From NCBI GenBank assembly GCA_030655955.1, contig JAUSOZ010000057.1, forward strand, positions 1 to 37,083: a stretch of DNA of 37,083 nt, written 5' to 3'. The stretch comes from Deltaproteobacteria bacterium (GTDB lineage Bacteria; Desulfobacterota; Desulfobaccia; Desulfobaccales; 0-14-0-80-60-11). Numbering within the stretch: the stretch's first letter is position 1; every line of letters starts with the position of its first letter. Positions 2,648-5,461 of this stretch are shown here, piece after piece. The notes below the pieces were generated by a model. The model did no database searches. It was given only the letters and a program-made list of their open reading frames with translations, and was not told the origin of the DNA. The position numbers were made by a program, and so were the translations under genes.

Positions 2648-3280
2648 ATGGAAAAATTTCATTATATTCATAAAACCGGCAGTGGAAGATCCTACCCTCT
2701 AGAAATTGGGTGGACAGCTCAGGACATTCATAAAATCCCTGTTGATAAGAATTTGACAGAAAATGCCTGCCGATCGGGTTGCCGGTTATATGGGAGAAAT
2801 GGAGGTTGCCCTCCCTTTTCTCCAGACTTCAAACTCTTGGGGAAAAGGTTCAAAGTAGCTAATATAATTTATACCAAACTGTTAATAGCTAATTATCCTC
2901 CAAAGGTTTTGGCCGGGAGCTACTATGTTAGATGGTCCTTTATCGAAGCATTACTCACGCCATTTACCAATAAATTTGCTAAAATTCTCAACGACCATAA
3001 GGAGGGATTATTTTTATCTTCCGGATTTTGTAGAGGATGTGGAAACCAAAGATGCGCGGTAAAAGACGGCGATAAATGTCGTCATCCTTTACGCCGGACG
3101 TTTTCTTTAGAATCAACAGGCGTGATAGTTTCTGAGGTTGCAGAGAAATTCTTAGGCTTCGAGCTTTGCTGGTGGGACAGGTTTAATAAAGATTATTTTC
3201 CATCATATATGACAAAGATAGTGTCCATACTAGGCAATCAGCCCATAGATAATTCCGATATATCGGCGCTATTTAAATAA
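2648..3280 (+). CDS. DUF2284-like cysteine-rich putative metal-binding protein
   Basis: CRSGCRLYGRNGGCPPFSPDF and CRGCGNQRCAVKDGDKCRHPLRRTFSLESTGV match the DUF2284 Cys pattern by eye. AT-rich composition. Confidence 0.75.
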   Translation: MEKFHYIHKTGSGRSYPLEIGWTAQDIHKIPVDKNLTENACRSGCRLYGRNGGCPPFSPDFKLLGKRFKVANIIYTKLLIANYPPKVLAGSYYVRWSFIEALLTPFTNKFAKILNDHKEGLFLSSGFCRGCGNQRCAVKDGDKCRHPLRRTFSLESTGVIVSEVAEKFLGFELCWWDRFNKDYFPSYMTKIVSILGNQPIDNSDISALFK

Positions 3281-4356
3281 TCTATAAATGGTGCAATTTC
3301 CGGTCCTAATTTAACCATATAACCCCTTGGACAATCTGGGTCTGGACCTATATCAAGATGACCGTGCTGCCTAACCCTTTGAGCCGGGCATCTCCCTTTA
3401 CAAATATCGCTCTTTGCACATTCTGAACAAACCGAAATGTTTTGGTGGTCAATCTTTTGAAATTCCTTAAAAACCTCTGATGTACTCCATATAAGAATCA
3501 AATTTTTATCTCTTATATTCCCTGCCACAAATTCAGGGAAATGCTTAAAAGCTGGACATGGGATCACATCCCCGCCTGGGGTTATACTACAAGTCGATTT
3601 GCCGGCCTTGCAGACAGATTGTTTCACTGTCTCATCGATGAAACCCAAGAAATCCAGTGGACATCCTGCGCGGATTTTCAGCCTATCGCCATTTTTTTTC
3701 TTTAATTGAGCAACAATTTTCAAGAATTCCCACAGCTTATCGCTTGCAAGTTTAAGTTTTGCTTTATTAACCTCTCCTCGACCCTGGGGAACAAATCTGA
3801 GAAGAGCTACCTCATCAATACCTATTTTACATGCGAGCTTTAACACATTTTCAAAGAATCTAGCATTGGGCTGCATGGGGACAAAATGCGTCCCAACCCA
3901 AAATCCCATTTTCTTCGCGTTTATAATAGTTTGGCAAAGAGCGTCAAAGCTACCGGGCTTTCTCGTTATTAGATCATGGACCTCACTTGTGGCACCTTGC
4001 AAATTAAAAATGATCTTATCTAACCCTTGGCTACACAGCTTCTTCAAAAGTGCCACACTTAAAGGCTTGCATCTCCCCTTATATGAAACCCCACATGTAT
4101 AAAGCCTGGTTTCAAGGCCTTTGCTCTTGGCAAAGGCCACAATATCTAAAAGATTTCTATGTAAGGTTGGCTCCCCCCCCGAAATTTCAAGAATTTTTCC
4201 CCCAAGGGCATGAAAGTCGGAAATAATTGGTTCAATTTCTTTCCAAGTAAGCTCATCGATATGCTTTTCACAACCAGGAAAAGCTGTAGAACAATGTAGA
4301 CAATTCATAATACAGCGGTTAGTTATTTCCAAACATAATTCATTCAGGTTTGCCAT
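3238..4356 (-). CDS. Radical SAM protein with C-terminal SPASM-type Cys domain
   Basis: CIMNCLHC (CxxxCxxC), GGEPTLH; C-terminal CSITPGGDVIPCPAF...CSECAKSDICKGRC...C. ATG at 4356 preceded by GGGGAGG; the longer ORF uses an upstream TTG. Confidence 0.9.
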   Translation of the reverse strand: MANLNELCLEITNRCIMNCLHCSTAFPGCEKHIDELTWKEIEPIISDFHALGGKILEISGGEPTLHRNLLDIVAFAKSKGLETRLYTCGVSYKGRCKPLSVALLKKLCSQGLDKIIFNLQGATSEVHDLITRKPGSFDALCQTIINAKKMGFWVGTHFVPMQPNARFFENVLKLACKIGIDEVALLRFVPQGRGEVNKAKLKLASDKLWEFLKIVAQLKKKNGDRLKIRAGCPLDFLGFIDETVKQSVCKAGKSTCSITPGGDVIPCPAFKHFPEFVAGNIRDKNLILIWSTSEVFKEFQKIDHQNISVCSECAKSDICKGRCPAQRVRQHGHLDIGPDPDCPRGYMVKLGPEIAPFIDYLNSADISELSMG

Positions 4357-4376: not shown

Positions 4377-5042
4377 TCAACCGCCGCCGAAAAGTTTGGT
4401 TAATATCAATATTAATATTCCTATTAAAATTCCGCCATAAATCTTAACTGCAGTTTCTACTGTTCCAAGACGGTGCGCTATTTCATGAATTGGAATCCCT
4501 GCACCCAAAAGAGGCATCATTTCCTTTGGCTCAATGTGTTGCTGTTTAAAATGATCATGTCCTTTATTGTAAATCTTTGCTCCATCTCTAATATATGTTA
4601 TAAAAAGAATAAAAGTTGGGTCTTTATATTTTAATAATACCTCAGCAGTCCCAGCATTGTAAAGCGAAAACTTAAGCCTTCCTTCAAATCCTGGGTCGAC
4701 ATGAAAACCTGAAACGTTTATTAGACCAGAGAGCTTATGCCTAGCTTTTATAGAAATAAATCCCATGCATTCTTTTGGAATTTGGACATATTCTTCTGTA
4801 ATCAATAGTGCAAAGTCGCCTGGAGCAATTTTTATAAAATTATCTTTGCTATTAAGCTTCTTCAGTTTTTTCTTGCTGCTGATAAAAGCTTCTTCTCCAA
4901 GAGAAAGCTCTAATGATGATCCTTGGATACGCTCCTCTTTAGGTCCATCTACCCATTCCGAGCTTTTCTCTTTAGGCAAAATATCTTTGATACGATCTTT
5001 GAAATCGCGGGTTGACCAAAAAGTTTTCGCTTTATCATCCAT
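4377..5042 (-). CDS. dCTP deaminase/dUTPase-superfamily-like protein with C-terminal TM anchor
   Basis: QGSSLELSLGEEAF, IAPGDFALLITEEYVQIPKECMGFISIKARHKLSGLINVSGFHVDPGFEGRLKFSLYNAG follow the Dcd/dUTPase fold pattern; C-terminal hydrophobic helix IYGGILIGILILILTKLFGGG. Confidence 0.75.
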   Translation of the reverse strand: MDDKAKTFWSTRDFKDRIKDILPKEKSSEWVDGPKEERIQGSSLELSLGEEAFISSKKKLKKLNSKDNFIKIAPGDFALLITEEYVQIPKECMGFISIKARHKLSGLINVSGFHVDPGFEGRLKFSLYNAGTAEVLLKYKDPTFILFITYIRDGAKIYNKGHDHFKQQHIEPKEMMPLLGAGIPIHEIAHRLGTVETAVKIYGGILIGILILILTKLFGGG

Positions 5043-5083: not shown

Positions 5084-5461
5084 TTATTTTTTTGCTAACG
5101 CAAGAATGTCGATGGCCATAGAAAAGCAAAAAGTGAGGATTAGCAAAAGGACGCCCGCCCAAACTAATAATTTAAAAGCTTGCTGCTGAAACAAGCTTGC
5201 ATTCTCAAACCATAATCCCAGCATTCCAAAAGTTAGAAGCGAAATTGCCAATATATAACCAGTCTGAACCGAACAAATCTGAAAGCTTATTTTTGGATTA
5301 ATATTGAAAATAATAATTACAAAACCACTTAATATAATAATTGGAAATATATAATAAATAATACTCCATATAATTTCGGCAACACCTTCAACGACCTCTT
5401 TTATAATTATCGCTATGCCCCTAAAGTCTCTTTTATTGCTAAACAATTCGTGGTTTGACAT
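5084..5461 (-). CDS. Small multi-TM membrane protein, unknown function
   Basis: 125 aa with about three hydrophobic segments (IIWSIIYYIFPIIILSGFVIIIF, TGYILAISLLTFGMLGLWF, LLVWAGVLLLILTFCFSMAIDILAL); same strand as its neighbours. Confidence 0.7.
   Translation of the reverse strand: MSNHELFSNKRDFRGIAIIIKEVVEGVAEIIWSIIYYIFPIIILSGFVIIIFNINPKISFQICSVQTGYILAISLLTFGMLGLWFENASLFQQQAFKLLVWAGVLLLILTFCFSMAIDILALAKK

What the first reader, a model, noticed from the sequence alone, without database searches (positions are those of the whole stretch)
4377..5042. Membrane-anchored dCTP deaminase/dUTPase-fold protein lacking the deaminase glutamate
By-eye alignment of HVDPGFEGRLKFSLYN with Dcd RIDPGWSGCIVLEFYN puts Ser where the catalytic Glu (E. 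coli Dcd E138) lies, and the RSS motif region reads KAR. A C-terminal TM helix (GGILIGILILILTKLF) would tether it to the membrane. It may be a nucleotide-binding sensor or a dUTPase-like enzyme rather than a deaminase.
Basis: partly seen in the sequence, partly recalled or inferred. Interest (0 to 1): 0.7.

Follow-up and report, generated by a model that had tools for sequence, protein, structure and literature searches.

The report
Membrane-tethered deaminase-like protein without catalytic glutamate
This gene encodes a membrane-tethered relative of a DNA-building-block enzyme that has lost the residue needed for the original reaction; its relatives across many bacterial phyla sit among genes that modify DNA building blocks, some of them close to virus-defence genes, so it probably binds or clips an unusual nucleotide at the membrane.

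Summary
Window 4377-5042 (minus strand) encodes a 221-aa dCTP-deaminase/dUTPase-fold protein with Ser126 at the E. coli Glu138 position, KAR in place of RSS, and a C-terminal transmembrane helix. None of this is private to the window. A well-supported clade of 26 sequences from at least six bacterial phyla has Ser or Ala there in every member, lacks the RSS serine pair, and keeps a pocket hairpin (GL-N-SGFHVDPG--G) that is almost invariant; every member carries a C-terminal hydrophobic helix. Missing Glu alone is not new: the nearest solved folds are archaeal dUTPases that also lack it. New is the combination of tail anchor, altered phosphate-binding motif and genomic company. 24 of 25 relatives' loci hold nucleotide-modification genes (5-hmdU DNA kinase, ThyA-like, MazG_C, UDG, Nmad2), one beside a Thoeris-like pair. 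An independent sample of 396 genomes of one phylum confirms the link. The window copy is a divergent version in a low-GC accessory operon (MerR, small membrane protein, this protein, radical SAM/SPASM), found in 2 of 4 sampled genomes of its genus. Best reading: a non-deaminating, membrane-tethered nucleotide-binding protein of a mobile, probably defensive, module. Sensor versus pyrophosphatase is unresolved.

The parts
4377..5042 (-). Tail-anchored DCD-like protein, 221 aa
   Evidence: ORF; PF22769 E=2e-12; AlphaFold2 model mean pLDDT 84.9
4593..4943 (-). DCD/dUTPase-fold domain, about residues 34-150
   Evidence: Pfam 34-138; PDB matches to residues 32-153; Foldseek to archaeal dUTPases and Dcd
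4740..4748 (-). K99-A100-R101 where Dcd has R110-S111-S112
   Evidence: alignment with E. coli Dcd and 26 relatives: first position always basic, serines not conserved
4680..4727 (-). Near-invariant pocket hairpin, residues 106-121 (GLINVSGFHVDPGFEG), holding D116 (= Dcd D128)
   Evidence: invariant G106 L107 N109 S111 G112 F113 H114 V115 D116 P117 G118 G121 in 26 sequences
4665..4667 (-). Ser126 at the position of catalytic Glu138 of E. coli Dcd
4386..4442 (-). C-terminal transmembrane helix, residues 201-219
   Evidence: hydropathy 2.17; helix 185-218 in the model
5084..5461 (-). Small membrane protein, 125 aa, 4 predicted TM segments, directly upstream; no family match
   Evidence: homolog only in the sister genome
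5547..6014 (-). MerR/HspR-like regulator, first gene of the putative operon
   Evidence: PF13411 E=9.7e-16
3238..4356 (-). Radical SAM/SPASM protein directly downstream (ATG 4356 preceded by GGGGAGG)
   Evidence: PF04055 and PF13186; sequence; co-occurs with the DCD-like gene in the same two genomes
2648..3280 (+). DUF2284 predicted metal-binding protein, convergent, overlapping the radical SAM 3' end
   Evidence: PF10050 E=3.2e-19; same arrangement in the sister genome

Best explanation
The protein is a tail-anchored member of a distinct, unnamed clade of the dCTP-deaminase/dUTPase superfamily. It does not deaminate dCTP. The DCD-fold domain probably faces the cytoplasm as a homotrimer (inferred from the superfamily) and binds a pyrimidine deoxynucleotide, perhaps a modified one, in a rebuilt pocket around the invariant K103, N109, S111, H114 and D116; the C-terminal helix holds it at the membrane. 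It most likely works as the nucleotide-sensing, signal-relaying part of a mobile nucleotide-modification module that is probably an anti-phage system. In the window the partners would be a MerR regulator, a small multi-TM protein and a radical SAM/SPASM enzyme. Shown: fold, missing Glu, altered motif, TM helix, gene neighbourhoods. Inferred: trimer, ligand, sensing, role in defence.
For: Ser/Ala replaces the catalytic Glu in 26/26 members, and the pocket hairpin is near-invariant across at least six phyla, so a ligand site is under strong selection without the deaminase residue. A C-terminal TM segment follows the domain across the clade. The clade is separated from canonical Dcd with 98/98 support. 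24 of 25 relatives' loci carry at least one of HMUDK, ThyA-like, MazG_C, UDG or Nmad2. In an even sample of 396 genomes of the phylum of L003 the clade occurs in 3 and HMUDK in 7, all 3 overlapping, with the genes 184 and 800 bp apart in the two genomes other than the starting one; for those two, chance overlap is about 2e-4. L001 has ThsA-like and ThsB-like genes in the same run. DefensePredictor (PMC13092281) validated 5-hmdU kinase and thymidylate synthase domains in defence and lists MazG, MazG-C, aGPT-PPlase and a dUTPase among predicted defence domains. The window operon is accessory: 34-42% GC against about 60%, present in G000 and G002, absent from the equivalent site of G003 and G004.
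Against: No biochemistry exists for the clade. The host genome has no 5-hmdU kinase match (the model rings in other genomes) and the window operon has none of the usual partners, so the role may differ there. An enzymatic role is not excluded: the dUTPase motif-3 Asp (D116) is invariant and some members keep a Y-G-H-Q stretch aligning with the start of the C-terminal lid of archaeal dUTPase. PADLOC has no model for it.
Confidence: 0.45

Rival explanations
1. A membrane-anchored (d)NTP pyrophosphatase: like archaeal P45 dUTPase, it hydrolyses dUTP, dTTP or a modified pyrimidine triphosphate, cleaning or channelling the pool for a thymine-modification pathway.
For: Nearest solved folds and sequences are archaeal dUTPases annotated as dCTP deaminase (9ln0, 9ln3, 8y1w), where the Glu position is Met and activity is dUTPase without deaminase (reviewed in PMC5122711). 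D116, equivalent to the dUTPase motif-3 Asp, is invariant. Neighbours of relatives include MazG_C, UDG and ThyA-like genes. The host genome has no recognisable Dcd or trimeric dUTPase over cut-off.
Against: The motif-2 serines are gone in most members and the motif-1 Asp is replaced by Glu, Thr and others in the family. G001, a 99% complete genome of the same genus, lacks the gene, so it is not a housekeeping dUTPase.
Confidence: 0.33
2. A degenerate structural relic or scaffold: the DCD domain only trimerises and positions partners; nucleotide binding is lost.
For: Catalytic Glu and phosphate-binding serines are lost; the window copy evolves faster (72% identity) than the MerR (86%) and radical SAM (87%) genes between two species.
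Against: The pocket hairpin is the most conserved part of the clade (12 invariant positions within residues 106-121); dN is far below dS.
Confidence: 0.13
3. An ordinary, merely divergent dCTP deaminase.
For: Database annotation of relatives as deoxycytidine triphosphate deaminase.
Against: Glu absent in 26/26; R115 column and RSS not kept; TIGR02274 score below cut-off.
Confidence: 0.04

Closest known systems
Archaeal dUTPases of the DCD family (Pyrococcus P45, PDB 9ln0/9ln3; Thermococcus pacificus, 8y1w)
   Same: Best sequence-profile (E about 3e-23) and fold matches; also lack the deaminase Glu; keep the D-P-G hairpin
   Different: They keep RSS and the motif-1 Asp and have no TM helix; the window clade has K-x-x, an invariant SGFH hairpin and a tail anchor
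dCTP deaminase Dcd (E. coli 1xs1) and bifunctional DCD-DUT (M. tuberculosis, M. jannaschii, B. halodurans)
   Same: Same fold, same hairpin Asp and Asn
   Different: No Glu138, no RSS, no Arg115 at the aligned column; TM helix added
Bacterial nucleotide-hypermodification / predicted defence cassettes (HMUDK, ThyA, MazG_C, UDG, Nmad2)
   Same: Relatives of this protein sit inside them (24 of 25 loci)
   Different: The window operon itself has none of these genes; it has MerR, a small membrane protein, radical SAM/SPASM and DUF2284
Nucleotide-gated membrane effectors such as CARF-TM or CBASS TM effectors (comparison from general knowledge)
   Same: Architecture of nucleotide-binding domain plus TM helix in a possible defence operon
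   Different: Different fold of the sensor domain; no cyclase or second-messenger synthase seen next to the window gene

Membership tests
DCD/dUTPase superfamily (PF22769) | Profile and fold match | tested here: met
   PF22769 47.9 bits against cut-off 27; Foldseek E about 1e-10 to 1e-9 against dUTPase and Dcd
dCTP deaminase (TIGR02274 equivalog) | Score over curated cut-off | tested here: not met
   60 bits against 92.8
dCTP deaminase (TIGR02274 equivalog) | Catalytic Glu (E. coli E138) | tested here: not met
   Ser126; Ser/Ala in 26/26 relatives
dCTP deaminase (TIGR02274 equivalog) | dCTP deaminase activity | not testable with these tools
   needs assay
Trimeric dUTPase | Motif 2 R-S-S | tested here: not met
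   K99-A100-R101
Trimeric dUTPase | Motif 3 catalytic Asp | tested here: met
   D116 invariant in 26 sequences
Trimeric dUTPase | Motif 1 Asp | tested here: not met
   E45 here; E/T/V/A/R/P/N in relatives
Trimeric dUTPase | Score over curated cut-off (TIGR00576) | tested here: not met
   20 bits against 102.55
Tail-anchored Glu-less DCD-like clade (described here) | SGFHVDPG hairpin, Ser/Ala at the Glu position, C-terminal TM | tested here: met
HMUDK-type nucleotide-modification cassette | Adjacent HMUDK, ThyA, MazG_C, UDG or Nmad2 gene | tested here: not met
   none among the annotated genes of the window island; no HMUDK match in the host genome
Known anti-phage system (PADLOC) | PADLOC model match | tested here: not met
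   no match for the protein; the radical SAM neighbour matches pVip only weakly (43 bits) and carries a SPASM domain

The most novel reading that the evidence does not exclude
The deaminase fold has been turned into a trimeric, ligand-gated membrane effector: a pyrimidine or hypermodified deoxynucleotide, made or depleted during phage infection, binds the rebuilt pocket and the tail-anchored trimer, with its small multi-TM partner, disturbs the membrane or recruits the radical SAM enzyme. This would be a new class of dNTP-sensing membrane effector.
Probability: 0.2. Interest if true: 0.82.

Novelty: new variant of a known kind. Interest (0 to 1): 0.55.

Why it matters
Databases name these proteins dCTP deaminase or hypothetical; the conserved loss of the deaminase Glu says the name is wrong for a whole clade. 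The constant company of 5-hmdU kinase, thymidylate-synthase-like, MazG and UDG genes gives a direct handle on how bacterial base-modification or defence cassettes sense or control deoxynucleotide pools at the membrane, which is unexplained. The gene is small and its soluble domain should be easy to assay.

Tried and rejected
Housekeeping dUTPase role: rejected because a 99% complete genome of the same genus lacks the gene. Radical SAM neighbour as prokaryotic viperin: weak PADLOC score (43 bits) and a SPASM domain; nearer to PqqE-type and other SPASM proteins, all below cut-off. Upstream small membrane protein as counterpart of the conserved upstream ORF of proteobacterial relatives: no similarity. 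Literature for a named tail-anchored dUTPase/DCD defence protein: none found; Burroughs 2015 is not held and a try for Iyer 2013 by a recalled DOI returned nothing, so prior mention there cannot be excluded. Phage relatives: only ordinary Dcd/dUTPase-type matches in annotated phages and one clade member on a predicted viral contig (L017). A regex pull of canonical Dcd sequences from loci gave nothing and was replaced by a tblastn-based extraction.

Full report
Observation. The ORF runs from ATG 5042 to the stop at 4377 on the minus strand, 221 aa. Pfam DCD matches at 2e-12, the dCTP deaminase equivalog only below its cut-off. Pairwise and multiple alignment place S126 on E. coli Dcd E138 and K99-A100-R101 on R110-S111-S112. 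The phmmer score is slightly higher with the E138A mutant chains (29.6 bits) than with wild type (29.2 bits). Hydropathy and the AlphaFold2 model (mean pLDDT 84.9, pTM 0.75) give a C-terminal TM helix.

Family. A genome scan, plasmids, a viral contig and the host's own relatives gave 25 further aligned members, from Bacteroidota, Verrucomicrobiota, Planctomycetota, Zixiibacteriota, Myxococcota and Pseudomonadota besides the host. Sixteen columns are invariant (I72 P89 K103 G106 L107 N109 S111 G112 F113 H114 V115 D116 P117 G118 G121 N129), twelve of them within residues 106-121. The Glu column is Ser in 21 and Ala in 5. The first RSS position stays basic, the serines are lost in most members. 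A C-terminal hydrophobic segment follows the domain across the clade. In a maximum-likelihood tree the clade is split from canonical Dcd and from four other TM-bearing DCD-like proteins with 98/98 support; one long, HTH-fused sequence (L047) falls inside it with weak local support and cannot be placed.

Nearest known. Profile search and Foldseek both put Glu-less archaeal dUTPases first (8y1w, 9ln0, 9ln3), then Dcd and DCD-DUT. A review records that the archaeal protein annotated as dCTP deaminase is an efficient dUTPase without deaminase activity (PMC5122711). So loss of the Glu has precedent and predicts loss of deamination, not a new chemistry by itself. The window clade differs by the altered motifs 1 and 2, the SGFH hairpin and the tail anchor.

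Neighbourhood of relatives. Clustering all ORFs around 25 relatives shows a 5-hmdU DNA kinase helical-domain protein (HMUDK, PF18723) in 17, ThyA-like and ImmA/IrrE genes in 12 each, XRE in 11, an unnamed HDExFHxEI protein in 11, MazG_C in 10, holo-ACP synthase-like in 8, UDG in 7, C1 peptidase in 6, Pfam ThyA in 5, Nmad2 in 4 and TIR in 3; 24 of 25 have at least one nucleotide-modification gene. HMUDK labels were checked by the Pfam model in six genomes: 5 of 6 over cut-off, the sixth (L002) lacking it in the clustering too. Because these loci were chosen by the DCD-like gene, an independent test was made: in 396 genomes of the phylum of L003, HMUDK occurs in 7 and the DCD-like protein in 3, all 3 among the 7; leaving out the starting genome, 2 of 2 against a base rate of 6 in 395, about 2e-4 by chance, with the genes 184 and 800 bp apart. 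L001 carries ThsA-like (651 bits) and ThsB-like genes in the same run. The DefensePredictor paper validated 5-hmdU kinase and thymidylate synthase domains in E. coli defence systems and lists MazG, MazG-C, aGPT-PPlase and a dUTPase among predicted ones; whether that dUTPase is this clade could not be checked.

The window's own operon. MerR, small membrane protein, DCD-like protein and radical SAM/SPASM lie on the minus strand with gaps of 85, 41 and 20 bp (taking ATG 4356 as the radical SAM start), followed by a convergent DUF2284 gene. The stretch has 34-42% GC between flanks near 60%. It is present with the same order and flanks in one of three other genomes of the genus; G003 has about 1.5 kb of other DNA there and G004 about 300 bp between the NtrC-like gene and TauE. 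DCD-like and radical SAM genes occur in the same two genomes. The DCD-like (72%) and membrane (51%) proteins diverge faster than MerR (86%) and radical SAM (87%), all with dN well below dS. The host genome shows no HMUDK and no Dcd or trimeric dUTPase over cut-off.

Mechanism. Shown: fold, lost Glu, altered phosphate-binding motif, conserved hairpin, TM helix, neighbourhoods, accessory status. Inferred: homotrimer, cytosolic domain, pyrimidine deoxynucleotide ligand, signalling through the membrane, role in defence. I prefer the sensor reading (0.45) over a membrane-held pyrophosphatase (0.33), because the hairpin is conserved while catalytic motifs 1 and 2 are not; D116 keeps the enzyme reading alive.

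Limits. TM segments were called by hydropathy and one model; no trimer or ligand prediction was possible; the pocket position of the invariant residues is inferred from the alignment with Dcd, not seen with ligand; two key bioinformatic papers by the Aravind group were not readable here, so earlier mention of this clade cannot be excluded.

Noticed in passing
L030:1450-2286, L031:1438-2109, L032:1384-2088, L033 (central match): Other DCD-like proteins with a C-terminal TM helix and no Glu at the E138 position (Gly or Pro instead), outside the window clade: tail-anchored Glu-less DCD proteins may be broader still.
   Followed up: partly
L054:3329-4490 (G097:C93): A helix-turn-helix domain fused to a DCD-like domain, directly preceded by a 97-aa, 3-TM ORF; resembles a split sensor and membrane partner.
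   Followed up: partly
L001:1584-8326: ThsA-like and ThsB-like genes in one run with Nmad2, the DCD-like protein, MazG_C and HMUDK (Myroides marinus): a possible Thoeris extension.
   Followed up: partly
L008:5390-5980, L009:5373-5918, L012:5324-5974 and eight other loci: An unnamed 138-216 aa protein (HDExFHxEI ... HMALHFAKY) encoded directly upstream of the DCD-like gene in 11 proteobacterial loci; the one tested had no match in Pfam, NCBIfam or PADLOC.
   Followed up: partly
window 3238-4356: Radical SAM/SPASM protein scoring weakly against many maturase families (PqqE, mycofactocin), none of those over cut-off; substrate unknown.
   Followed up: partly
G000 whole genome: No dCTP deaminase or trimeric dUTPase over curated cut-off in a 97.7% complete genome; how it controls dUTP was not examined.
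   Followed up: partly
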